A stretch of DNA of 24,471 nt from a virus: positions 1-24,471 of the IMG/VR virus record IMGVR_UViG_3300044631_001202; one strand, 5' to 3'. The notes beneath the pieces are model-generated. The model was not told the DNA's origin, made no database searches, and worked only from the letters and a program-made list of their open reading frames with translations. This document shows, piece after piece, positions 9,563 through 24,190 of the stretch; the stretch's first letter is position 1; the number at the start of each line of letters is the position of its first letter. The translations under genes and the position numbers were made by a program.

Positions 9563-9994
9563 ATGCCCTATAAAACGAAATACATTCCAGTAAATCCCAC
9601 AAAATATATAGGTGATACAAATAATATTATTTGTAGATCTCTGTGGGAAAGAAAATTTTGTAAATACCTAGATAGCAATACGAATGTAGTTCGCTGGTCA
9701 TTTGAAGCAATAAAGATACCATATTTGTCTCCCATCGACAAAAAAATACACAACTATATCCCAGATTTTTTGGTAGAGACTAAAGATAAAGATGGAAATG
9801 TAAAAACTAGTATAGTAGAAATAAAACCCAAAAAACAAACCAGAGAACCGGAAAAACTTAAAAAATCAAAAAAAACACTATTAACAGAAAGCATATCCTT
9901 TGCAGTAAATACAGCAAAATGGGAATCTGCTAAACAATTTTGCGACAAGCACGATATAACATTTAGAATATTGACAGAGGAGGAACTATTTTGA
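9563..9994 (+). CDS. 4: Head-completion nuclease-like protein, gp4
   Basis: 143 residues from ATG 9563; T4 gp4 has 150. The protein reads MPYKTKYIPVNPTKYIG, then RSLWERKFCKYLD, then IPYLSPIDKKIHNYIPDFLV, then SIVEIKPKKQT and an ITFRILTEEELF end. The order E (in WERKF), PDF and EIKPK is the E-x-D-ExK-type catalytic core of the restriction-endonuclease/TnsA fold found in gp4 (gp50) head-completion proteins, which act on packaged DNA ends before tail joining. The in-frame ATG at 9557 gives MRMPYK; I prefer 9563 because the late promoter predicts transcription starting there. The stop TGA overlaps the TTG start of the next gene. Confidence 0.88.
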   Translation: MPYKTKYIPVNPTKYIGDTNNIICRSLWERKFCKYLDSNTNVVRWSFEAIKIPYLSPIDKKIHNYIPDFLVETKDKDGNVKTSIVEIKPKKQTREPEKLKKSKKTLLTESISFAVNTAKWESAKQFCDKHDITFRILTEEELF

Positions 9995-10614
9995 CTTACA
10001 ATAGGGCATTTTCACCCGGCCAAACCATAACAGACTTTAAAAAGAAAATATTGACTTTTGGTGGTGGTCTTCAGCAAGTTAGTAGATATGAAGTAATTCT
10101 ACAGGGCCCTGGATCCCTTCCTTCTGTTATAACTTATCCCGAAAATGTGGCATTACCACCAAGATCTTTCGTTTCGACTCCATTTAGTAACTGGGGTCCA
10201 GATTTCAATATACCAATTAAAAGAGAATACGGAGAGTGTGCCATATCATTCATAATATATCAGGATTGGTACGAACGAAAATATATAGAGTCTTGGATGG
10301 ACAAGGTGATCCCAACAGGAATTGTATCTGGTTCTGGTGGTGGAGGAGATGCCGCAGCAAGTGCCTCTGATTTTTCCGATTATACTAATCCTTACTCTAT
10401 TTTTTCTGGATCTGTTCAGATAAACTGTCTTTCTATAAACTCAAACTCCGGCGGCGGAGGAGGAAGAATTACTGCAAAAATAAAACTAAATGACGCCTAT
10501 CCTTTGTCAATTACACCGACTACATTAAGTGCGGAAGCGTCTGGTTATGGAACCTTTGTTTCGATATTTTCTTTTAGGGACTATTCGTTTGAATGTCCTA
10601 CTAGTTTAGATTAA
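9991..10614 (+). CDS. Tail-tube-fold protein (gp54/gp19-like)
   Basis: 207 residues from a TTG start at 9991 that overlaps the gp4 stop (TTGA) and is preceded by a strong ribosome site (AGAGGAGGAAC). RYEVILQGPGS, ENVALPPRSF, then the strand FNIPIKREYGECAISFIIYQ and helix ERKYIESWMDKVIP fit the gp19 tail-tube fold, as does the end AKIKLNDAYPLSITPTTLS with IFSFRDYSFE. The loop at about 112-125 is Gly/Ala/Ser-rich, and another glycine run (GGGGGRI) lies near 152. In T4 this fold serves the tube (gp19) and the baseplate junction (gp54, gp48). Being next to gp4 and gp26 rather than the sheath gene, it is more likely a junction/initiator protein than the main tube, but this is inference. Confidence 0.65.
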   Translation: MTYNRAFSPGQTITDFKKKILTFGGGLQQVSRYEVILQGPGSLPSVITYPENVALPPRSFVSTPFSNWGPDFNIPIKREYGECAISFIIYQDWYERKYIESWMDKVIPTGIVSGSGGGGDAAASASDFSDYTNPYSIFSGSVQINCLSINSNSGGGGGRITAKIKLNDAYPLSITPTTLSAEASGYGTFVSIFSFRDYSFECPTSLD

Positions 10615-10630
10615 TTATGGAGATTTTTAA

Positions 10631-11356
10631 ATGAATATTTCTGATATCTTGAAATCAACAACACCCAAATTTTCAGATACTGTTCCTTCTACCGGAAAAG
10701 TGATATGGTTTAGACCATTTTTGGTTAAAGAAGAAAAAATATTACTAATAGCACAAGAAACTGCAACCGATGGTGGAATAATGAAAGCAGTCAAAGAGGT
10801 TGTGGAAGCATGCTTTGAGGGAATAGGGGATGCATCAAAAATACCAATATTTGATCTGGAATATTTGTTTATAAAACTTAGAGCTAAATCCATACAAGAA
10901 ATAGCAATTCCCATTCTAGTATGTCCAGTTACCTCCGAAGAAATAAAATTAAATATAAATCTAAATGACATAAAAGTATCTAAAAATAAAAACCACACAA
11001 ATAAAATAAAAATAACAGATGAAATAGTTATTGGTATGAAATATCCTTCGATATCTATATTTTTAGAAAATAATATAGAGACTATGGAGTTAATTGATTT
11101 TTACGAACTAGCGGTAAATTGTATAGAATACATTGAAACCAAAGACGAAAAAATAGAAGCTTCAAGTATTACTAAAGAAGAGTTAGTAAAATTTGTAGAT
11201 AATATGACAAAAAAACAATTTGATAATGTAATTGATTTTTTTGCAACAATGCCAAAAATAGAAAAAACTGTAGAATATACGACATCTGATGGTGTAAAGA
11301 GATCGATTGTATTGAGAGGAATTAAAGATTTTTTCGGATTGGCCTCAGTCACTTAA
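10631..11356 (+). CDS. 26: Baseplate hub/tail assembly protein gp26-like (0-frame product)
   Basis: 241 residues. The pattern KVIWFRPFLVKEEKILLIAQ, then FDLEYLFIKLRAKSIQE, then ILVCPV, with a late helical part ending KDFFGLASVT, matches the gp26 baseplate-hub family of T4-like phages. A GGAG ribosome site stands 9 bases before the ATG. Six codons before the normal stop, at codons 234-235, sits the heptamer T TTT TTC in slippery phase. Directly beyond it a -1 frame stays open for 73 codons up to the next gene. The protein is therefore probably made in two lengths, 241 and 308 residues, like the G and GT tail-assembly chaperones of lambda, which also precede the tape measure gene. Confidence 0.8.
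   Translation: MNISDILKSTTPKFSDTVPSTGKVIWFRPFLVKEEKILLIAQETATDGGIMKAVKEVVEACFEGIGDASKIPIFDLEYLFIKLRAKSIQEIAIPILVCPVTSEEIKLNINLNDIKVSKNKNHTNKIKITDEIVIGMKYPSISIFLENNIETMELIDFYELAVNCIEYIETKDEKIEASSITKEELVKFVDNMTKKQFDNVIDFFATMPKIEKTVEYTTSDGVKRSIVLRGIKDFFGLASVT
11329..11335 (+). promoter_or_regulatory. Predicted -1 ribosomal frameshift site (T TTT TTC)
   Basis: The heptamer TTTTTTC is in the X XXY YYZ phase of the gp26 frame (codons TTT TTC at 11330-11335). After a -1 slip, decoding continues CGG ATT GGC from 11335. I see no convincing pseudoknot right behind it. An 8-base complement (GCCTCAGT at 11342-11349 and ACTGAGGC at 11466-11473) could pair over a distance, but it is weak evidence. Confidence 0.7.
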
Positions 11357-11556
11357 CCATTGGTTCTTTCTATGATATAAATTTTAAACTCATACATCAT
11401 TATAAGTATAGTTTAACTGATCTAGAAACACTAATACCCTGGGAAAGAGACATATATCTAGAGTTACTGAGGCAAGAAATAGAAGTAGAGAACAACAGAA
11501 TCCTTAATCAGCAAAATATGGCAAACGCATTATCTAGAAAAGGTAGAATGTTATGA
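11335..11556 (+). CDS. Frameshift extension of gp26 (gp51-like region), -1 frame
   Basis: This frame is open for 73 codons from the slippery site and has no good start of its own; its first ATG (11518) leaves only 12 codons. Translation gives RIGLSHLTIGSFYDINFKLI, then HHYKYSLTDLETLIPWERDI, then YLELLRQEIEVENN and a short tail. The LIPWERDIYLELL motif recalls the C-terminal part of tail assembly chaperones and gp51-type baseplate catalysts. The TGA at 11554-11556 overlaps the ATG of the tape-measure-like gene (ATGA), so the fusion product could be coupled to it. Without the shift, 196 bases between 11356 and 11553 would be noncoding, which is unusual in so dense a genome. The 308-residue fusion would be join(10631..11335,11335..11556). 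Confidence 0.7.
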   Translation, partial: RIGLSHLTIGSFYDINFKLIHHYKYSLTDLETLIPWERDIYLELLRQEIEVENNRILNQQNMANALSRKGRML

Positions 11557-13268
11557 ACGAAAGCAACGAAAAGGACATTTTAAAATTAAAAGAAGAAATT
11601 TTAAATATTTTTTCAAGTTCTATGACAATTAATGCTTTGTCTAGATTTAAAGCCGATGAATTTTCAAATATAAGTGTTCCTGCTCCAGAAAATGAATCTA
11701 AGTCAATGCCCAAAAGTGTATCGGATACTCCAATACAAATTAATGTAAATGTTGATGGCGAAAAAATAGATAATTCAAAAAAATATGAAAAGAGTATTAT
11801 CTTTGATAAAGGTAAACAATCATATAACATTAATTTAAAAAAAAATAATGTATTGCAAAAAATATTAAACTATAATTCTAATTTTATAACAAAATTTAAT
11901 CCATTAAATATACATCAAGAAATAAATCAAAGTGAATTATTTTTCACAAAGAAATATGGATTGACTGAAAGGAACAAGGTTAAAACAAAAAAATCAAAAA
12001 AGTTAGTAGGAGAGATGAATTTTGTTTTTGATAATCCTTATAGTTTCTTTACAAATGTTGGCAATTATTATATAAAAAATAATACAACTACATCTAACAA
12101 TCAAAATTATATAAAAAATAATACAACTACATCTAACAATCAAAATTATATAAAAAATGATATTAACACGGCAACAACCGTCAATCAACTAAATGAAACT
12201 AACAATTCAATTAACGCACCCACCACAAACTATCTAAATGAAACTAACAATTCAATTAACGCACCCGTTACAAGCGTTAATAAACAACTAAATCAAAATA
12301 TGTTCGTAGATGGTAATGTGAAAAATAATACCGAAATTAATAATACAACTCCTATTACAAATATCGACAATAATAATTTTTTAGTTAATGATACTAGTAA
12401 TATAACAAATCAAACTCGTACGGTTGAAAACAATACCAAGGATACTACAAATATCGACAATAATAATTTTTTAGTTAATGATACTAGTAATATAACAAAT
12501 CAAACTCGTACGGTTGAAAACAATACCAAGGATACTACAAAAATAATTAACAATGATACAAATGTAATTGATATGTTTAAAACCAATAATGTAGTCTTAA
12601 ATAGACAAAATGATAACATATACAATTATAATATGACACAGTTAAATAAACCAAATTACGAATTTACAAAAAAAGAACAATATGTAACTGTAGATAAATC
12701 AAAAGGTGAAACGCTCTCTACACTTAAAAAATTAACATTTAGTCAAATGAATCAAAGAACTGTAAATAGAATTCAGGCTAAAACTATAACACAAAACAAA
12801 GAAAATAAACTATTAGTTCCTGCTTTTGCCGGCGGCGGAGAGGGCATAGTTAAGAGTACAACCCCCATCGTAATAGGAGAAAGAGGAACTGAAAGCTTTC
12901 AGGTTATACCACAGAGCAATTCTACCCCTGCAATTTCTTCAAGTCCAACATCTGCTCTTCGTGGGGAATCTGCTGTAGAATTTAAAACAAATGACTCTGG
13001 TGATAAAATATCAGAAGCAATTAAAAAGGACACACAAAATAAGCAATCCAATTCTGAAAAATCATTAGAAAATACAAAGGAAAACGAATCAAAGGATATA
13101 GTAAATGAACTTAAAGATGCATCTAAAGATTTAACTCCAGATAAGGGAAAAAGAAAAACCTCAGCAAAACCGGCAAATATTAAAATTGATAATAAACCAT
13201 TGATAATTGAATCATTTAAAAGATTAACTATCGGAACCACTCCCATATGGAGAACTAAGCACATGTAA
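11553..13268 (+). CDS. Probable tail tape measure protein (gp29-like) with tandem repeats
   Basis: 571 residues; T4 gp29 has 590. Evidence for a tape measure role is the position directly after the frameshifted gp26/51 chaperone, the length, and a C-terminal segment (about 424-453) with LLVPAFAGGGEGIVKS and PIVIGERGTESFQVIPQ, which resembles the FAxGGxV...xxIGExGxExxxP segment common near tape measure C-termini. Residues 170-350 are unusual: Asn/Thr-rich rather than helical, with three perfect or near-perfect tandem duplications (13, 15 and 30 residues). The end (about 470-550) is Lys/Ser/Glu-rich and probably helical or disordered. The family assignment is inferred; a fibrous structural protein is the alternative. 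The ATG overlaps the stop of the frameshift extension. Confidence 0.6.
   Translation: MNESNEKDILKLKEEILNIFSSSMTINALSRFKADEFSNISVPAPENESKSMPKSVSDTPIQINVNVDGEKIDNSKKYEKSIIFDKGKQSYNINLKKNNVLQKILNYNSNFITKFNPLNIHQEINQSELFFTKKYGLTERNKVKTKKSKKLVGEMNFVFDNPYSFFTNVGNYYIKNNTTTSNNQNYIKNNTTTSNNQNYIKNDINTATTVNQLNETNNSINAPTTNYLNETNNSINAPVTSVNKQLNQNMFVDGNVKNNTEINNTTPITNIDNNNFLVNDTSNITNQTRTVENNTKDTTNIDNNNFLVNDTSNITNQTRTVENNTKDTTKIINNDTNVIDMFKTNNVVLNRQNDNIYNYNMTQLNKPNYEFTKKEQYVTVDKSKGETLSTLKKLTFSQMNQRTVNRIQAKTITQNKENKLLVPAFAGGGEGIVKSTTPIVIGERGTESFQVIPQSNSTPAISSSPTSALRGESAVEFKTNDSGDKISEAIKKDTQNKQSNSEKSLENTKENESKDIVNELKDASKDLTPDKGKRKTSAKPANIKIDNKPLIIESFKRLTIGTTPIWRTKHM
12069..12146 (+). repeat. 39-base tandem repeat, two copies plus a partial third
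   Basis: Each copy encodes YIKNNTTTSNNQN (residues 173-185 and 186-198). A partial third copy (YIKN, then Asp) begins at 12147. The unit length keeps the frame. Confidence 0.95.
12189..12278 (+). repeat. 45-base tandem repeat, two copies
   Basis: Each copy encodes LNETNNSINAP plus four residues that differ between copies (TTNY, VTSV); residues 213-227 and 228-242. The first 33 bases are identical. Confidence 0.93.
12357..12536 (+). repeat. 90-base perfect tandem duplication
   Basis: Two identical 90-base copies (12357-12446 and 12447-12536) encode 30 residues that begin TNIDNNNFLVNDTSN and end ENNTKDT. With no base difference by eye, the duplication looks recent or kept uniform by recombination. 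Confidence 0.95.
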
Positions 13269-13274
13269 AAAGAA

Positions 13275-13298
13275 ACAACCCCGAGGCCTCGGGGTTGT
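13275..13298 (-). terminator. Terminator of the gp32 gene
   Basis: A perfect 24-base palindrome (ACAACCCCGAGG and its complement). On the minus strand it is followed by TTCTTTTTAC, so it terminates gp32 transcription. On the plus strand no T-run follows, though the hairpin may still mark the end of the converging tape-measure transcript. A second, imperfect hairpin (CCAGAGAT/ATCTCCGG) lies between it and the gp32 stop. Confidence 0.85.
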
Positions 13299-13326
13299 CG
13301 GACCGGAGATGCTATCTCTGGTGGGG

Positions 13327-14238
13327 TTAGTCGTCAGCGAGCTTCTTGAAATATTCAAGAGCATCGGTCGAGTCATCTGACTCTTCCTCTACTGGGGGCT
13401 TCTTGGTCTTGGCAGACCCACCCCATTGCTTTTCGGCAATTTCCTCTTCTTCAACATCCTCTGCGGTTCGTTGACCCATTGGAGCCTTACCGCGAATGTC
13501 ACCCTTTAGAACGCTTTCCAACTTAGTCTTAAGTTCTTCGTAAGACTTGAAGTTAGAAGGATCTGTGAATTCCTTAAGAGCATTCTGACTGTTCCAGATC
13601 TTTTCTAGTTCTGTATCTGCACCACCGAGTAGAGCAGATGAAGAATCAAACTCGCTCTTGTCATAGTTGACATAACCACCAACATTACGAACCTTGAGCT
13701 TAAAGTTTGCACCAGTCCAGAAATTAAATGGATCAATTGGTTCTTCGTCCTTGAATTCAGGTTGCATTGCCTCCTGAATCTTCTCAAAGATCTTCTGACC
13801 ATACTTGAACAAGAACACCTTTCCTTCATTCTGAGGATTAGCAGGATCACTAATCACATAGATGTTAGAGATGTAGTTCAACTTACGCTTACGCTGCCGC
13901 GCAAGATCCTTATCGCTATCCATTCCACTCTTCCAGAGTAGACTATTCATTTCTGAAACCGGATCTTGCTTTCCAAGGGTAGTGAGTGAATTCTCAATGT
14001 ACCACCCACCCGGACCTTGGAATGCGTGGGAATAGAGCTTGACCCACGGAACATCCTCACCATCTACCGTTGGGAGGAAACGAATAATGGCAAAACCGTT
14101 CTTTGCCTTATCCAGTGTAGGACGCCAGAAACGCTCGTCCTTATAATCCTTCTTGCCACCTTCTTCTTCTGCAAACTTCTTGACTAGAACATCAATGCTA
14201 GTCTTTGACTTCTTCTTAAAATCGCTAAATGAACTCAT
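13327..14238 (-). CDS. 32: Single-stranded DNA-binding protein gp32-like, without the zinc cysteines
   Basis: 303 residues; T4 gp32 has 301. The core aligns by eye with T4 gp32: RFWRPTLDKAKNGFAIIRFL, then GGWYIENSLTTLGKQDPVSE, then NIYVISDPANPQNEGKVFLF, YGQKIFEKI, FNFWTGANFKLKVRNVGGY, and an acidic tail ending DDSTDALEYFKKLADD. The protein coats single-stranded DNA in replication, recombination and repair, and the acidic tail recruits partners. Where T4 has its zinc-binding CPVC, this protein reads DPVSEMN, and it contains no cysteine at all, so the zinc site is absent. The N-terminal KKKSKTSIDVL may serve cooperativity. A strong ribosome site (AAGGAGATTTAA) precedes the ATG, behind two hairpins and a sigma70-type promoter. 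Confidence 0.9.
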   Translation of the reverse strand: MSSFSDFKKKSKTSIDVLVKKFAEEEGGKKDYKDERFWRPTLDKAKNGFAIIRFLPTVDGEDVPWVKLYSHAFQGPGGWYIENSLTTLGKQDPVSEMNSLLWKSGMDSDKDLARQRKRKLNYISNIYVISDPANPQNEGKVFLFKYGQKIFEKIQEAMQPEFKDEEPIDPFNFWTGANFKLKVRNVGGYVNYDKSEFDSSSALLGGADTELEKIWNSQNALKEFTDPSNFKSYEELKTKLESVLKGDIRGKAPMGQRTAEDVEEEEIAEKQWGGSAKTKKPPVEEESDDSTDALEYFKKLADD

Positions 14239-14251
14239 TTAAATCTCCTTC

Positions 14252-14296
14252 CCGAAGTTCTCCTTCGGACTAAACTTTCGGTGGGAACTCCCCACC
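14252..14296 (-). promoter_or_regulatory. Two-hairpin leader of gp32
   Basis: On the transcript, GGTGGG/CCCACC (14280-14296) and CCGAAG/CTTCGG (14252-14268, loop GAGAA) form two hairpins. The second ends only a few bases before the ribosome site. T4 gp32 represses its own translation by binding a structured leader; the same role here is inference. Confidence 0.6.
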
Positions 14297-14308
14297 ACTG
14301 ACAAAACA

Positions 14309-14337
14309 AGTATACCACAACCCATTGTGCCGTTCAA
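14309..14337 (-). promoter_or_regulatory. Sigma70-type promoter of gp32
   Basis: TTGAAC (14337-14332), 17-base spacer, TATACT (14314-14309) on the minus strand. The -35 overlaps the stop codon of the gp33 gene. Confidence 0.7.
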
Positions 14338-14561
14338 GCAAAGGGTAGTGAATTCTTTTTTCTTGGCAAAAGATTTAATCTTTGTCCCTCTTCTTGAAGT
14401 TTTTCAACTATTGGTTGAGATAATAATTTAGACGAAACACTTATATCAATAGAATTTTCTTCTAATGTATAAATAATTGCATCCATGTAAGAACAATCTT
14501 TTTCTTTTACTCTATTTTCGACTTTCTTAGAAAAGTCTTCTTTGGTTAATTCAATAAACAT
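14334..14561 (-). CDS. 33: Late transcription coactivator gp33-like
   Basis: 75 residues against 112 in T4 gp33. VENRVKEKDCSYMDAIIYTL, then EENSIDISVSSKLLS, then IVEKLQEEGQRLNLLP follows the order of the T4 gp33 core (EKMVEEFGMSYLEATTAFLE, then EENSIP, then IIEKIQSEAIDENLL). gp33 binds the flap of host RNA polymerase and links it to the gp45 clamp for late transcription together with sigma factor gp55. The C-terminus (LPRKKNSLPFA) is short. It lies just upstream of gp32 and has its own TATAAATA box, with only about 7 bases of leader. Confidence 0.75.
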   Translation of the reverse strand: MFIELTKEDFSKKVENRVKEKDCSYMDAIIYTLEENSIDISVSSKLLSQPIVEKLQEEGQRLNLLPRKKNSLPFA

Positions 14562-14573
14562 ATGTTATCTTTC

Positions 14574-14581
14574 TATTTATA
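14574..14581 (-). promoter_or_regulatory. T4-type late promoter box before gp33
   Basis: TATAAATA on the minus strand; predicted +1 near 14568, 7 bases before ATG 14561. No ribosome site fits in that leader. Confidence 0.55.
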
Positions 14582-14588
14582 TTACCAT

Positions 14589-14596
14589 TATACATA
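14589..14596 (+). promoter_or_regulatory. Possible variant late promoter (TATACATA)
   Basis: One base off TATAAATA. It is placed so that +1 is near 14602, just before the ribosome site AGAAGGAA of the structural gene at 14616. It diverges from the gp33 promoter. Confidence 0.35.
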
Positions 14597-14615
14597 GTTC
14601 TTAGAAGGAATCAAG

Positions 14616-15875
14616 ATGCCATACACATTAGATAATATTTTAGTTACAACTGCTACCGGAGATGCGTATTTAGCAACAGATTGGGGAACCAGTGGAACTG
14701 GTTTTAGTTTAACACATGTACCAATTTCAAAGATAGCATATGGCACCGATAGTACAACAACTAGAGTTGATACTAGCAGCCCACTTCCGATAAGCATTTA
14801 TGGATGGACTGGAACCAATATAGGAATAACCGGAACTGTCGCAGGAAGAGGTACATTTGTAGTCGGATTATCCTCTGAAAGTTCTTTCTTAAAAATAGCA
14901 GGAACTACGTTTTCCACTATACCAGTCGGAATAAGCGGTAATATACAAGGCATCACAAATGGTGTTTTGGTTGGTGTAACTGGCACAGTAGATATACGAA
15001 CAACTAATTTTGGCGTATTTGGTATTTCTGGTGCCACTGCTGTAGGAATAACAGGCGGAAGACGATTAAACTATAGTAGTGATTCGGTTTCAGTTTATGG
15101 AAATGTAGGAATAAGCGGAAGTATAAATCTAACCGAATCCACAGATAGCATAAGAGTTTATGGCCATGACGGCGATCTTAAACTCTCAAGTAAGATATAT
15201 TCATCCAATGGAACTACTCTTGGTGTTTCAGGTGACGCACTAAAAGTTGCCGTAACAAATCATGGATTTACATTTACAGTATCTATTGGATCTACTGTAG
15301 GTGTATCGAATTATGGGGGTGGATTGATGGTAAAGGGAACAGGTATTACCTCAGACTATCCAATAATAGTGCAGGGCGCGGCCGCTGATGGATCCATAGA
15401 AGTAACTGCAACCGAAGCATTACCCGTAACTGTAGAAAATAATATTGATGTAGATCTATCCTCTATAATACCATTACTAGGGGCAACCGGATCAATCTAT
15501 ACAGCACTTAATAATATAAAAACCAATACAAATCCAATAACCAGTATAAATGATAAACTTGGAAATGGAACAATACAAGTAAAAATTGTAGATAATACTA
15601 AACCATCTTCGGTTTATAGCGGATCAAAAATATCATCTACTGCTGCATCGCAGTTATCAACATTAACTAATAGATTAGTATCTGGAGTACACATCAAATC
15701 ATCAATTTCAAATACTAACACTATTTTTGTTGGTGGTTCTACATTAGTAACTAGATCAACTGAAGGATATCCTTTAGAACCAGGAGAATCTATTTTTATA
15801 GAAACTGGAGCATTAACTACGATTTATGTTAGATCTTCGGCCGGTAATGGAACAATCAACTTCATTGCTTCATGA
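14616..15875 (+). CDS. Virion structural protein, glycine-rich beta-repeat type
   Basis: 419 residues. About residues 60-240 show irregular short beta repeats with G-I/V-S/T-G turns (GITGTV, GISGNI, GVTGTV, GISGAT, GITGG, GISGSI), as in beta-solenoid or stacked-strand fibre proteins of phage virions. Residues about 335-419 form a distinct C-terminal domain (VSGVHIKSSISNTNTIFVGG, then GYPLEPGESIFIETGALTTI, then YVRSSAGNGTINFIAS), a pattern I recognise in phage structural proteins without an assigned role. An AGAAGGAA ribosome site precedes the ATG. The stop overlaps the next start (ATGA). A neck, whisker, fibre or head-decoration role are all possible. Confidence 0.6.
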   Translation: MPYTLDNILVTTATGDAYLATDWGTSGTGFSLTHVPISKIAYGTDSTTTRVDTSSPLPISIYGWTGTNIGITGTVAGRGTFVVGLSSESSFLKIAGTTFSTIPVGISGNIQGITNGVLVGVTGTVDIRTTNFGVFGISGATAVGITGGRRLNYSSDSVSVYGNVGISGSINLTESTDSIRVYGHDGDLKLSSKIYSSNGTTLGVSGDALKVAVTNHGFTFTVSIGSTVGVSNYGGGLMVKGTGITSDYPIIVQGAAADGSIEVTATEALPVTVENNIDVDLSSIIPLLGATGSIYTALNNIKTNTNPITSINDKLGNGTIQVKIVDNTKPSSVYSGSKISSTAASQLSTLTNRLVSGVHIKSSISNTNTIFVGGSTLVTRSTEGYPLEPGESIFIETGALTTIYVRSSAGNGTINFIAS

Positions 15876-17635: not shown

Positions 17636-17641
17636 AATAAA

Positions 17642-17715
17642 CATTTCCGACAGGACTTGAACCTGTAACCTATAGCTTAGAAGGCTATTGCTCTATCCAG
17701 TTGAGCTACGGAAAC
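17642..17715 (-). tRNA. tRNA-Arg (anticodon TCT)
   Basis: A complete 74-base cloverleaf: acceptor GTTTCCG/CGGAAAT, D stem GCTC/GAGC, anticodon stem ATAGC/GCTAT with loop CTTCTAA, and T stem ACAGG/CCTGT with loop TTCAAGT. CCA is not encoded. It reads AGA, a frequent arginine codon in the AT-rich phage genes here. A sigma70-type promoter lies immediately upstream. Confidence 0.93.
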
Positions 17716-17727
17716 AAATATAGACAT

Positions 17728-18101: not shown

Positions 18102-18323
18102 TTAATTATCACACTGACAACAACGACCCATAATCCTATCCCAAAGAGAACACTTTGGTGGCTTATCAACTGGCCAACATTGACCAGTAATATCTTCTAA
18201 TTGATATGCGTTTTTGACATCAATCGCGCGGGATGATGCTTCAACAAATTCATCTTCTGTAAAAAGAAGATCTATGCATCTACCATCAATCACTTTCTTT
18301 ACATGAATATATTCGTTACTCAT
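18102..18323 (-). CDS. Small cysteine-rich hypothetical protein
   Basis: 73 residues from ATG 18323, supported by the AAGGATG ribosome site; a longer reading would run into the tmRNA. It begins MSNEYIHVKKVIDGRCIDLL and ends in a cysteine-rich segment (QCWPVDKPPKCSLWDRIMG, then RCCQCDN) that could bind a metal. I do not recognise a characterised family. It follows the tmRNA 3' end by only 18 bases and precedes the Sm-like gene by 9 bases, so the three are probably on one transcript. Confidence 0.65.
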   Translation of the reverse strand: MSNEYIHVKKVIDGRCIDLLFTEDEFVEASSRAIDVKNAYQLEDITGQCWPVDKPPKCSLWDRIMGRCCQCDN

Positions 18324-18340
18324 AAAAACATCCTTTATAA

Positions 18341-18706
18341 TGGAGGCCGGGGGAGTCGAACCCCCGTGTATCTCATACTTATGTATAAGCATCTACATGA
18401 TTAGTTTCTTTTCGTATAGCAGGATTTGTAAGGTAAGAAACAAACTTACAATCTGCTTTGACCATTTATTTCGATCCGTTTACTGGTCACTCACGGTCTA
18501 TCAGATTTTGAGAAGTCAGGAGTTATCTGAGTAGTTCCTGTACCCTCTTGACGGTCCTAATGAATTAAGGATCGACTGTTTCTCAAGCAGCCATTGCAAA
18601 TGCACGAGTGTTGGCATTTGTGGTTTGGTTGTTTTTAACGAAGCCATCAACCATCTTCGTCATGCTTCTTTACATTTGTTTAAGATATCGAATCCGATTG
18701 GCCCCC
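18341..18706 (-). ncRNA. ssrA: tmRNA (one-piece, phage-encoded)
   Basis: About 366 bases; E. coli tmRNA has 363. The 5' end GGGGGCC pairs with GGCCTCC at the 3' end as a 7-base acceptor. The 5' part carries the conserved GGATTCGA, and the 3' part has a T arm (CGGGGG, loop TTCGACT, CCCCCG). CCA is not encoded. A PK1-type pairing (GACGAAG/CTTCGTT) precedes an A-rich stretch, after which a short ORF (18615-18583) starts at a GCC resume codon and encodes ANTRAFAMAA followed by TGA. That is the length and style of bacterial proteolysis tags (E. coli ANDENYALAA). tmRNA frees stalled ribosomes together with SmpB and marks the products for ClpXP/ClpAP. It begins 10 bases after the stop of the 201-residue gene, which has a late promoter. 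Confidence 0.92.
18583..18615 (-). other. tmRNA tag-peptide reading frame (ANTRAFAMAA)
   Basis: Ten codons from GCC plus TGA, inside the tmRNA. The Ala-Asn start and -AMAA end match known tags. The exact resume codon is inferred from the A-rich context ACAAAT just before GCC. Confidence 0.8.
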
Positions 18707-18716
18707 TTTAGTCTTT

Positions 18717-19322
18717 CTAAAGAACTAAGTCTTTATTAACAATCTTTATTTTACCATCTGATGCGGTATATTTCAAGTTCGGTCTTGGAGTAATTGCATT
18801 CTTTGGTCCGATCTCAATCTGACCGATTGTTTTTGCGTTTCCTTTGCCCTTTGGTACACTTAAAATATTAATTGCACCACCTCTAACTGATCCAAAATTG
18901 TCGGATATTTGTCTGCTATTGCCTCTTGGGCCGACTAAATGGAAAGATCCCTGATGACGAACAATTCGGTGTTGCTCGTTAGGTTTTCCTCTCAATACTA
19001 CATCGATAATTTGACCATGTTCTAGATTTTTCAGTAGATTAAGTTGTTCCTCGTATCGTTTTGCATGTTCTTCGGCCTTTTTAGCGTCTGCGGCCGCCTG
19101 TTTTAATCTTTCTTCTTTATTTTGTCTTGCCGCGGCGGCCTTTTTTCGTCGGATATGAGCGTCATCTCTAATACCTTGAGCAAGCCGTAGTAGTTTATTT
19201 GTTTCTTCCATGCCGGATTGATGCATACCAGCCTGACGAAACATCTTAGCACTAGATTCCTCTAATGATCCCCAAGCACCAGATTTAACTAAAGATTCTA
19301 AAAGTTCTCTGAGTATTTTCAT
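18717..19322 (-). CDS. Hypothetical late protein with Ala/Lys/Glu-rich coiled coil
   Basis: 201 residues, not recognised. Residues about 55-100 form a highly charged Ala-rich helix (RRKKAAAARQNKEERLKQAA, ADAKKAEEHAKRYEEQLNLL). The C-terminal half looks beta-rich (GQIIDVVLRGKPNEQHRIVR, FHLVGPRGNS, KTIGQIEIGP). A TATAAATA box at 19338-19345 and the ribosome site GAGGT precede the ATG, so late expression, and perhaps a virion role, is likely. It ends 10 bases before the tmRNA, which could be read from the same promoter. The GC-rich helix region contains a GCGGCCGC Ala-Ala-Ala run. Confidence 0.6.
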   Translation of the reverse strand: MKILRELLESLVKSGAWGSLEESSAKMFRQAGMHQSGMEETNKLLRLAQGIRDDAHIRRKKAAAARQNKEERLKQAAADAKKAEEHAKRYEEQLNLLKNLEHGQIIDVVLRGKPNEQHRIVRHQGSFHLVGPRGNSRQISDNFGSVRGGAINILSVPKGKGNAKTIGQIEIGPKNAITPRPNLKYTASDGKIKIVNKDLVL

Positions 19323-19337
19323 ATTTTACCTCAGAGA

Positions 19338-19345
19338 TATTTATA
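19338..19345 (-). promoter_or_regulatory. T4-type late promoter box before the 201-residue gene and tmRNA
   Basis: TATAAATA on the minus strand; predicted +1 near 19332, 10 bases before ATG 19322, leaving the GAGGT ribosome site at the very 5' end of the transcript. Confidence 0.6.
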
Positions 19346-22048: not shown

Positions 22049-22049
22049 A

Positions 22050-22124
<75 letters not shown>

Positions 22125-22273: not shown

Positions 22274-22302
22274 ATTATAACAGATCAGGGGGTGGTTGTC
22301 AA
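22274..22302 (-). promoter_or_regulatory. Consensus sigma70 promoter upstream of tRNA-Lys
   Basis: TTGACA (22302-22297), 17-base spacer, TATAAT (22279-22274): both hexamers and the spacer are at consensus. The -35 overlaps the stop region of the gene at 22285. Confidence 0.85.
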
Positions 22303-22836
22303 TACCCACCACTGAGGAATCTTATTATTCTTCCATCTGGCAAACCTTGCCTTTGCACCAATGTAATAGGCACGATATGCCTCAACTGCGTCAGTATTCT
22401 TGTAAATATCTGGCATTGCTTGTGCAAACGGCGTAAGAGGACCAATTGGAAGCCCAAGTGGTCTTTTCTCTTGTAACCAAGTCAATAGATTATATGAAGT
22501 ATGAATCTTACCATAACGAGATGTGTATTCGTGACACATTTCAATGGCATGATTTGCCAACCAATCATAATTTGAAGTTGTATGCCGAGTCCAAATTGTG
22601 CAAGGATGATTGATCATCGTGGATCGATAAATGAAACCATCTGTGATTGGATTAGGATGAATGTAGGTTGTATATTTCCTACCACCCTTTCCCAGTTTAG
22701 TTGACACTGTGCCATCCAAGTAACGATGTGCAGTTGAGAGTAATTGAGCACTCTCAAGAATCATTTTAACTACATGCTTGTCACATAGATTCTGTGCAGC
22801 AACTCTTGGATCATTATCTAAAACAAAAATATTCAT
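22285..22836 (-). CDS. Conserved-type phage protein of unknown function
   Basis: 183 residues from ATG 22836, which overlaps the stop of the 49-residue gene (ATGA); the longer GTG reading to 22872 would overlap that gene further. Characteristic parts are MNIFVLDNDPRVAAQNLCDK, HVVKMILESAQLLSTAHR, MINHPCTIWTRHTTSNYDWL and CHEYTSRYGKIH, with invariant-looking Asp, His, Cys and Trp residues that suggest an enzyme. I recognise the pattern as recurring in phage genomes but cannot name a proven activity. It ends the GMP reductase operon. Confidence 0.7.
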   Translation of the reverse strand: MNIFVLDNDPRVAAQNLCDKHVVKMILESAQLLSTAHRYLDGTVSTKLGKGGRKYTTYIHPNPITDGFIYRSTMINHPCTIWTRHTTSNYDWLANHAIEMCHEYTSRYGKIHTSYNLLTWLQEKRPLGLPIGPLTPFAQAMPDIYKNTDAVEAYRAYYIGAKARFARWKNNKIPQWWVLTTTP

Positions 22837-22982
22837 AGAAATGTTTTTGGAATCAAACCGGTCTTTTCCCACAACTCACGAGTTTTCTTCTTTGCGTCCT
22901 TACGCATTTCAATACTCTTATTACGATCTCTGATGATACGCTTACGATGCTTTCGCTTTACGATTCTTCCTGACTTATTCAT
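22833..22982 (-). CDS. 49-residue very basic protein
   Basis: ATG 22982 follows the GMP reductase stop by 1 base (TAAAATG), and the TGA overlaps the next ATG (ATGA). MNKSGRIVKRKHRKRIIRDR, then NKSIEMRKDAKKKTRELWEK, then TGLIPKTFL: about 40 percent Lys/Arg/His. Nucleic-acid binding is plausible; no family recognised. The tight coupling on both sides is the main evidence that it is a gene. Confidence 0.7.
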   Translation of the reverse strand: MNKSGRIVKRKHRKRIIRDRNKSIEMRKDAKKKTRELWEKTGLIPKTFL

Positions 22983-22983
22983 T

Positions 22984-23991
22984 TTATGCTCCAAAAATAT
23001 TATTAATCTGATTATTCACACGAACAAAAGTAGTACGCTTTGGTAGATGCTTGATACGACTTGCACCAACATAAGTACAAGCGGATCTCAACCCACCTAG
23101 AATTTCCCCCATGACTGCGGAGGCACTTCCCTTGTATGGTACACGAACAAGTTTCCCTTCGCTAGCCCGATGGGATGCTACGCCACCAAAATGCTTTGTC
23201 ATGGCAAACTCCGACGACATGCCATAAAAAGTTTTATGAGTCAGAACACCATTTTCATAGATTGGTGTTCCTGTTGACTCATCGGTGCCAGATAACATCC
23301 CACCGAGCATAACGAAGTCCGCGCCGCCTCCGAAGGATTTTACAACATCACCGGGACAGGTGCACCCGCCATCCGCCATGATATGACCGCCCAGTCCATG
23401 CGCTGCATCGGCGCACTCCATTACTGCCGAGAGTTGAGGATAACCCACTCCCGTCATTTTCCGAGTGGTGCATACGCTTCCTGGGCCGATTCCAACCTTT
23501 ACTATATCCGCGCCGGATAGGATCAGTGCTTCCGTCATTTCCGCCGTTACCACATTCCCTGCGATTAATATTGCATTCTTCCATTTTTGTCTAGTTTCCT
23601 TTACTAAATCAACAAACACTTCCGTATAACCATTTGCTACATCTAGGCAAATGAACGGAATATCATCCGTATAAAAATCCTGTAAATTTTCTCTACTTGC
23701 TTCATCCAAACCACAAGTCAGTGCGATATATTCTTTATTTAGAATTTGATCGTATTCGCTCTTGGTGATAAACTTGTGCATACAAGTAATTGCTTTAAAT
23801 GGACTTAAAGTATTTGCCATTTTTGGCACACCAATAGTATCCATATTTGCAGCAACAATAGGAACTCCTGTCCAAGTTCTTTTGCTGTGTAAAAATGTAA
23901 ATGTTCTATTTAGATCTACTTCTGCTCTCGATGTTAATTTAGAACGCTTTGGTCGAATCAATACATCAGAATAATCAAGTTTCATTTCCAT
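22984..23991 (-). CDS. guaC: GMP reductase
   Basis: 335 residues from ATG 23991; E. coli GuaC has 347. It follows E. coli GuaC closely: [50 protein letters not shown], then [20 protein letters not shown] with catalytic Cys174, [56 protein letters not shown] and [14 protein letters not shown]. No CBS domains, and GuaC-like rather than IMP-dehydrogenase-like throughout. The enzyme reduces GMP to IMP with NADPH, releasing ammonia. All core motifs are present, so it looks active. The start follows a GGAAAG site; a longer in-frame start at 24033 would overlap the upstream gene. It heads a tight run with the 49- and 183-residue genes. Confidence 0.93.
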
Positions 23992-24190
23992 TAGATTTCT
24001 TTCCACCACTCTTACCACCCATATGATTTTCAATATGAAGTTGTAGAGATTTCATCTTCTTTGCTAGTGTCTTTCGATCTGCTTTGTCGAGAAGATACTG
24101 TTCATAAGTATACACTGCCTGCGTTGCAAGTTCAATCAATTCGATAATATAATCATTATCGTAAGCGTTTGCTTTAGTTTTCCCGAACAA
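23975..24190 (-). CDS. Small hypothetical protein
   Basis: 71 residues from a TTG at 24190 that has AAGGA 8 bases upstream; a TTG at 24214 is the alternative (79 residues). The body [20 protein letters not shown], then [20 protein letters not shown], then [18 protein letters not shown] is mostly helical, with a Gly/Lys-rich tail ([12 protein letters not shown]). Not recognised. It overlaps the GMP reductase start by 17 bases and the upstream gene by about 17 bases. Confidence 0.5.

What the first reader, a model, noticed from the sequence alone, without database searches (positions are those of the whole stretch)
18341..18706. Phage-encoded one-piece tmRNA with tag ANTRAFAMAA
A full tmRNA (7-base acceptor, GGATTCGA, PK1-like pairing, tag frame ending in TGA, TTCGACT T loop) sits in the accessory region of a T4-like phage. 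tmRNAs are known in some phages but are uncommon in T4-like ones as far as I know. The tag keeps a degron-like -AMAA end, but its interior differs from the host tags I remember. It could keep ribosomes recycling during host mRNA destruction, or replace a host tmRNA damaged by infection. The one-piece form also argues against a recent origin from alphaproteobacteria or marine picocyanobacteria, which use two-piece tmRNAs.
Basis: partly seen in the sequence, partly recalled or inferred. Interest (0 to 1): 0.9.

Follow-up and report, generated by a model that had tools for sequence, protein, structure and literature searches.

The report
One-piece tmRNA of a T4-like phage
An uncultivated T4-like phage carries its own complete ribosome-rescue RNA (tmRNA), apparently switched on late in infection; phage tmRNAs are already known, but at the same spot related phages carry either a rearranged two-piece tmRNA or a short, undescribed RNA with tmRNA-like ends, so the locus is a good place to ask what phages want from ribosome rescue.

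Summary
Window 18706-18341 (minus strand) is a one-piece tmRNA: ARAGORN, and Rfam RF00023 end to end (109.8 bits, E 2e-42). It has a G3-U70 acceptor, a GGATTCGA D-loop analogue, four pseudoknots and the tag ANTRAFAMAA. Ten T4-like contigs share it; helices covary, and the tag stays identical despite CGT/AGA and AAC/AAT codon changes, so it is selected as a translated peptide. The tag was not found in about 85,000 GTDB species genomes. It is a new member of a known kind: about 2% of phages have tmRNAs, and two-piece ones are published for marine T4-like phages (PMC9004378). New here: (1) the RNA lies in a unit headed by a T4-type late promoter (TATAAATA), conserved in 10 of 10 relatives, pointing to late ribosome rescue rather than early host-mRNA destruction. 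(2) Upstream of the same downstream gene (p73), relatives carry a permuted tmRNA or a 144-167-nt RNA with covarying acceptor, long helix and T arm but no conserved tag (17 contigs, no Rfam match); I read it as a tmRNA-like, TLD-only RNA. (3) No SmpB gene was found in eight related contigs. Host unknown; nothing was tested experimentally.

The parts
18341..18706 (-). one-piece tmRNA gene (5' end at 18706, discriminator A at 18341, CCA not encoded)
   Evidence: ARAGORN; RF00023 109.8 bits, E 2e-42; conserved in 10 contigs
18700..18706 (-). acceptor 5' strand GGGGGCC; pairs with 18342-18348 (GGCCTCC), G3-U70 wobble
   Evidence: sequence; G-U pair invariant in 10 of 10
18342..18365 (-). T arm GGGGG-TTCGACT-CCCCC (18349-18365) and acceptor 3' strand (18342-18348)
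   Evidence: sequence; invariant T stem
18627..18659 (-). pseudoknot PK1 (CGAAG/CTTCG and GGTTG/CAACC)
   Evidence: hand-built structure, invariant in 10 sequences
18583..18615 (-). tag reading frame GCC...TGA: ANTRAFAMAA, stop included
   Evidence: ARAGORN; peptide identical in 10 sequences with synonymous changes CGT/AGA and AAC/AAT
18501..18540 (-). pseudoknot PK2 (CAGGA/TCCTG and TCAGAT/ATCTGA)
18460..18496 (-). pseudoknot PK3 (CCGT/ACGG and GACCA/TGGTC), covarying
   Evidence: pairs changed on both sides across relatives
18404..18451 (-). pseudoknot PK4 (TTGTAAG/CTTACAA and GTTTCTT/AAGAAAC), covarying
19338..19345 (-). T4-type late promoter motif TATAAATA upstream of p201 and the tmRNA
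   Evidence: TATAAAT at -23/-24 of the p201 start in 10 of 10 relatives
18717..19322 (-). p201, ORF of 201 aa directly upstream of the tmRNA; function unknown
   Evidence: no PHROG or Pfam match; orthologues at the same place
18102..18323 (-). p73, ORF of 73 aa directly downstream of the tmRNA; marker of the locus in relatives
   Evidence: alignment A3; 79 loci

Best explanation
A functional phage one-piece tmRNA. Shown: sequence, fold, tag conservation, gene order, conserved late-promoter motif. Inferred: it is transcribed late together with p201 and p73 from the TATAAATA promoter, cut out of that transcript by host tRNA-processing enzymes, given CCA and alanine by host enzymes, and bound by host SmpB. 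It then enters ribosomes stalled on truncated messages, adds (A)ANTRAFAMAA so that the fragment is degraded by host proteases, and frees ribosomes for virion-protein synthesis.
For: Full-length RF00023 match and ARAGORN. Ten sequences with covarying helices and invariant G3-U70. Tag peptide identical through synonymous codon changes. TATAAAT at -23/-24 of the p201 start in 10 of 10 relatives; in the window the motif also precedes gp25, baseplate, head-closure and gp33 genes. No SmpB gene in eight related contigs including one of 123 kb, so host SmpB is implied. [quoted passage not shown]
Against: No expression, charging, SmpB-binding or tagging data. A sigma-70-like site inside p201, 42 nt upstream of the tmRNA, could add earlier expression. 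Melnitz authors place their phage tmRNA after an early promoter (PMC9004378). Contigs are fragments, so a phage SmpB is not excluded.
Confidence: 0.72

Rival explanations
1. The main benefit is the altered tag: by out-competing host tmRNA, the phage version changes which adaptor or protease handles tagged proteins (DEN of the common ANDENYALAA tag is replaced by TRA, Y by F, L by M).
For: The tag is kept letter for letter in ten phages and was not found in genomes of 84,980 species.
Against: Overall length and the hydrophobic-AA end are kept; -AMAA ends occur in bacteria such as Endozoicomonas, so the fate of tagged proteins may be ordinary. The host tag is unknown.
Confidence: 0.13
2. The RNA acts mainly as a competitor or sink for host SmpB or host tmRNA, not as a tagging RNA.
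For: A TLD-only tmRNA-like molecule strongly inhibits tmRNA according to PMC4131195; related phages carry a short tag-less RNA upstream of the same gene.
Against: Here the tag, PK1 and the alanine signal are all conserved, which a pure competitor would not need.
Confidence: 0.05
3. A passing fragment of a bacterial ssrA gene picked up at a prophage site or misassembled into the contig.
For: Host ssrA genes can be prophage integration sites and ssrA fragments occur in prophages (noted in PMC9004378).
Against: Full length, covarying and conserved in ten phage contigs at one locus; no close bacterial relative among those in hand.
Confidence: 0.02

Closest known systems
Two-piece (permuted) tmRNA of Methylophilales phage Melnitz and related marine T4-like phages (PMC9004378)
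   Same: Phage-encoded tmRNA in marine T4-like phages, in a gene neighbourhood upstream of gp33/gp32.
   Different: Permuted two-piece gene, glutamine riboswitch and early promoter reported there; here one-piece, late-promoter motif, different tag.
One-piece tmRNAs of mycobacteriophages (Bxz1 group, Wildcat) and Bacillus phage G (PMC4131195, PMC7474061)
   Same: Complete one-piece phage tmRNA; [quoted passage not shown]
   Different: Different phages, hosts and tags; no nucleotide similarity to any of 50,697 phage records.
Bacterial one-piece tmRNA (Rfam RF00023)
   Same: Same fold: tRNA-like domain, helix 2, PK1, tag frame, PK2-PK4, G3-U70.
   Different: Only about 62-70% identical to the bacterial tmRNAs in hand; tag not found in bacteria.
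Mycobacteriophage DS6A TLD-only tmRNA-like RNA (PMC4131195), compared with the short RNA of related phages
   Same: Acceptor, T arm and helix-2-like arm without a tag domain.
   Different: The short RNA here is conserved in 17 contigs, has its own core motifs and no Rfam match. The DS6A sequence itself was not compared.
T4 RNA C (species 1 RNA), compared with the short RNA of related phages
   Same: Phage RNA of about 140 nt annotated as small and stable, with a T arm near its 3' end.
   Different: The model of the short RNA does not match it at E up to 1; it folds with an extra hairpin before the T arm.

Membership tests
one-piece tmRNA (RF00023) | covariance-model match over the whole RNA, standard gene order | tested here: met
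   109.8 bits, model 1-374
one-piece tmRNA (RF00023) | 7-bp acceptor with G3-U70 alanine signal, and T arm | tested here: met
   invariant in 10 sequences
one-piece tmRNA (RF00023) | resume codon after PK1, short tag frame ending in a hydrophobic residue + AA and a stop | tested here: met
   ANTRAFAMAA*, conserved through synonymous changes
one-piece tmRNA (RF00023) | helix 2 and pseudoknots PK1-PK4 | tested here: met
   98.9% standard pairs; helix 2, PK3 and PK4 covary, PK1 and PK2 are invariant and so uninformative on covariation
one-piece tmRNA (RF00023) | alanylation, SmpB binding and tagging of stalled peptides | not testable with these tools
   needs biochemistry
two-piece (permuted) tmRNA | permuted gene order, match to RF04321 or RF01849-RF01850 | tested here: not met
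   no such match in the window; ARAGORN gives standard order
T4-like phage | T4-type core genes next to the RNA | tested here: met
   gp25, gp53, head closure, hub, gp32 and gp33 families; T4 portal in the 123-kb relative
TLD-only tmRNA derivative (for the short RNA of related phages, not the window RNA) | tmRNA-type acceptor, T arm and long helix without a tag | tested here: inconclusive
   Acceptor and T arm covary, long-helix arms pair best with their own partner in 8 of 9, no conserved tag frame by inspection; but no Rfam match, G3-U70 absent, linker to the long helix only about 6 nt

The most novel reading that the evidence does not exclude
One T4-like phage lineage uses a fixed locus (upstream of p73) to set trans-translation during infection in opposite ways: some members supply a full tmRNA with their own tag, one-piece or permuted, while others carry a tag-less tRNA-like RNA, lacking the alanine signal, that binds SmpB and blocks trans-translation.
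Probability: 0.12. Interest if true: 0.75.

Novelty: new member of a known kind. Interest (0 to 1): 0.42.

Why it matters
Why phages carry tmRNA is unsettled; the published guess for a T4-like phage places it early in infection (PMC9004378). A conserved late promoter in front of a one-piece tmRNA gives a testable alternative: late ribosome rescue while virion proteins are made. The locus also offers a natural comparison, because related phages carry a full tmRNA, a permuted tmRNA, or a short TLD-like RNA upstream of the same gene. The short RNA is a candidate new RNA family.

Tried and rejected
Host assignment by tag: no hit in GTDB genomes. Host by tmRNA similarity: the bacterial tmRNAs in hand are all about 62-70% identical and none groups with it; that bacterial sample came from one motif scan and is biased. 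General enrichment of late promoters directly upstream of viral tmRNAs: TATAAAT occurs within 120 nt in 9 of 84 loci, several of them near-copies and many AT-rich, so I make no general claim; the ten loci were selected by the motif and prove nothing. Weak RF00023 matches at the short RNAs (11.5-11.9 bits) are far below the threshold of 47 and were not used. An in-frame ending VIE* in two short-RNA types is not kept in the others, so I do not call it a tag. Kinship of the short RNA with T4 RNA C: suggested by CCGAG..AGCGTT, but the model does not match. Contamination or prophage-site remnant: rejected by conservation in ten phage contigs.

Full report
WHAT IS THERE. The window is a 24,471-base virus record from a T4-like phage: baseplate wedge (gp25, gp53 types), head closure, tail tube, gp26-type hub, gp32 and gp33. 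Its nearest cultivated relatives by gp32 and the hub protein are mostly cyanophages, at only 57-59% and about 40% identity. At 18706-18341, minus strand, lies a one-piece tmRNA: ARAGORN and Rfam RF00023, 109.8 bits, E 2e-42, end to end.

IS IT REAL AND KEPT? Nine further IMG/VR contigs carry it. A scan with the PK1 sequence alone and a scan with the downstream protein p73 return the same nine contigs, so the shared tag is not produced by searching for it. The sequences are 86.5-99.7% identical to the window's. A hand-built structure with acceptor, T arm, helix 2 and four pseudoknots gives 98.9% standard pairs, falling to 34-48% when partners are slid by 1-3 columns; five pairs show changes on both sides (helix 2, PK3, PK4) and the covariation score exceeds all 500 shuffles. 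That shuffle control does not allow for relatedness, and a structure drawn from these sequences favours itself in the slide control; PK1 and PK2 never vary and so show no covariation. The tag peptide is identical in all ten although the Arg codon is CGT in four and AGA in six, and Asn is AAC or AAT. This is the signature of a translated, selected peptide. The G3-U70 alanine signal is invariant.

THE TAG. ANTRAFAMAA has the length and outline of the common ANDENYALAA, with DEN replaced by TRA, Y by F, and L by M. A scan for DNA encoding it found nothing in genomes of 84,980 species (contigs under 3 kb are not held). The -AMAA end does occur in bacterial tags, e.g. Endozoicomonas, so degradation by ClpXP-like proteases is plausible but untested.

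TRANSCRIPTION UNIT. The tmRNA is wedged between p201 (stop codon 10 nt upstream here, 0 nt in seven relatives) and p73 (ATG 17 nt downstream of the discriminator base). TATAAATA, the T4 late-promoter motif, lies 15 nt upstream of the p201 start (19338-19345). TATAAAT is present in 10 of 10 relatives at -23/-24, including one whose upstream gene differs (L015). In the window the motif also lies at the starts of the gp25, 2175-aa baseplate, head-closure and gp33 genes: five of eight exact sites are at gene starts in the right orientation. I infer late transcription of p201-tmRNA-p73 and excision by host tRNA-processing enzymes. A sigma-70-like site inside p201 (18776-18748) could add earlier expression. 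The published view for Melnitz is an early promoter (PMC9004378). [quoted passage not shown]

PARTNERS. No SmpB gene (PF01668) was found in eight related contigs, including one of 123 kb, while the ten bacterial control genomes ring. Host SmpB is therefore the likely partner; the contigs are incomplete.

THE SAME LOCUS IN RELATIVES. p73 anchors the locus. Among 79 p73 loci: (i) the full one-piece tmRNA in nine, all in the window clade; (ii) permuted tmRNAs 0.4-0.8 kb upstream of p73 in L403, L411, L420 and L437 (ARAGORN; RF04321 63-70 bits); (iii) in 17 contigs, a 144-167-nt element ending 4-44 nt before the p73 match; (iv) nothing recognised in the rest. More distant gp32 relatives also carry permuted tmRNAs. 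In a p73+p107 tree the short-RNA contigs form one clade (support 0.998) and the full-tmRNA contigs another (0.982), and they are not clear sisters. So one-piece or two-piece form changes within this phage lineage and says little about a bacterial donor.

THE SHORT RNA. It folds as a 7-bp acceptor, a short GG-containing loop, a long helix and a T arm with loop TTCGACT, TTCAACT, TTCAATT or similar. The acceptor varies in step (GGGAATA/TATTCCY, GGGAGTA/TACTCCT, GGGACTA/TAGTCCT, GGGGATA/CATCCCC with one A-C mismatch), and so do the T stems; five pairs have double changes. The long-helix arms pair best with their own partner in 8 of 9 types (mean -11.1 against -5.5 kcal/mol for crossed partners). 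Folding energies are below shuffles in all nine types (z -1.6 to -4.1), though some upstream coding windows fold about as well. Core motifs ATTACGCT and CTT..GG...GTCATA are invariant. No Rfam family matches. By inspection no tag frame is conserved, and G3-U70 is absent. It was not found elsewhere in four contigs that have the full tmRNA. I read it as a tmRNA-like, TLD-only RNA, comparable in plan to the DS6A TLD-only RNA; PMC4131195 notes that a similar molecule strongly inhibits tmRNA, perhaps by titrating SmpB. Common ancestry with the window tmRNA rests on position and plan, not on sequence, and is not shown. T4 RNA C is a loose analogue only.

HOW COMMON. PMC9004378 counted tmRNAs in 402 of 18,146 phages, with 53 of 133 unique structures two-piece, 50 of those from marine or aquatic samples. 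The finding is therefore a new member of a known kind; the late unit and the mixed locus are what is new, as far as the open-licence literature held here shows.

LIMITS. Host unknown; contigs are fragments; no expression data; subscription papers are not held, so prior notice of one-piece tmRNAs in T4-like phages may exist elsewhere.

Noticed in passing
L406:500-643, L413:326-480, L399:729-879, L410:2835-2986, L418:2824-2974, L422:2851-2998, L433:1110-1258, L440:2832-2998, L441:1968-2115: Conserved 144-167-nt RNA with tRNA-like ends upstream of p73 in related T4-like phages; covarying acceptor, long helix and T arm, no Rfam match. Candidate new RNA family.
   Followed up: partly
L015, L202, L205, L060, L206, L201, L203 (GACTAAGGGGGCC): The p201 stop codon directly abuts the first base of the tmRNA. 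Cutting the tmRNA out would leave a p201 message ending at its stop codon, a possible substrate of the tmRNA itself.
   Followed up: no
L007, L017, L033, L034, L108, L115; L008, L044, L078; L035, L036, L107, L346: Families of viral one-piece tmRNAs with long, conserved, unusual predicted tags (21-31 aa), e.g. AKTAKYKGHISARASLVEMTASVA and ANNIVDMAPSLDEADAILAKFGWAEEAAVAA.
   Followed up: no
L015 ORFs at 9771-11384, 11388-12599, 12601-13425, 13445-14377, 14370-14852; window p201 18717-19322: Several proteins share an N-terminus like MKSFxxFIxE, recalling the T4 capsid-targeting sequence of internal head proteins (from memory, untested); p201 has a similar MKILRELLES start.
   Followed up: no
window 22984-24033 and 22285-22872 (minus): An IMP dehydrogenase/GMP reductase-type gene and a pyrimidine-dimer glycosylase-type gene in the phage.
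   Followed up: no
window 17641-17716 and 22049-22123 (minus): tRNA-Arg(TCT) and tRNA-Lys(TTT) genes flank the tmRNA; tRNA-Arg(TCT) lies near gp32/p107 in many relatives.
   Followed up: no
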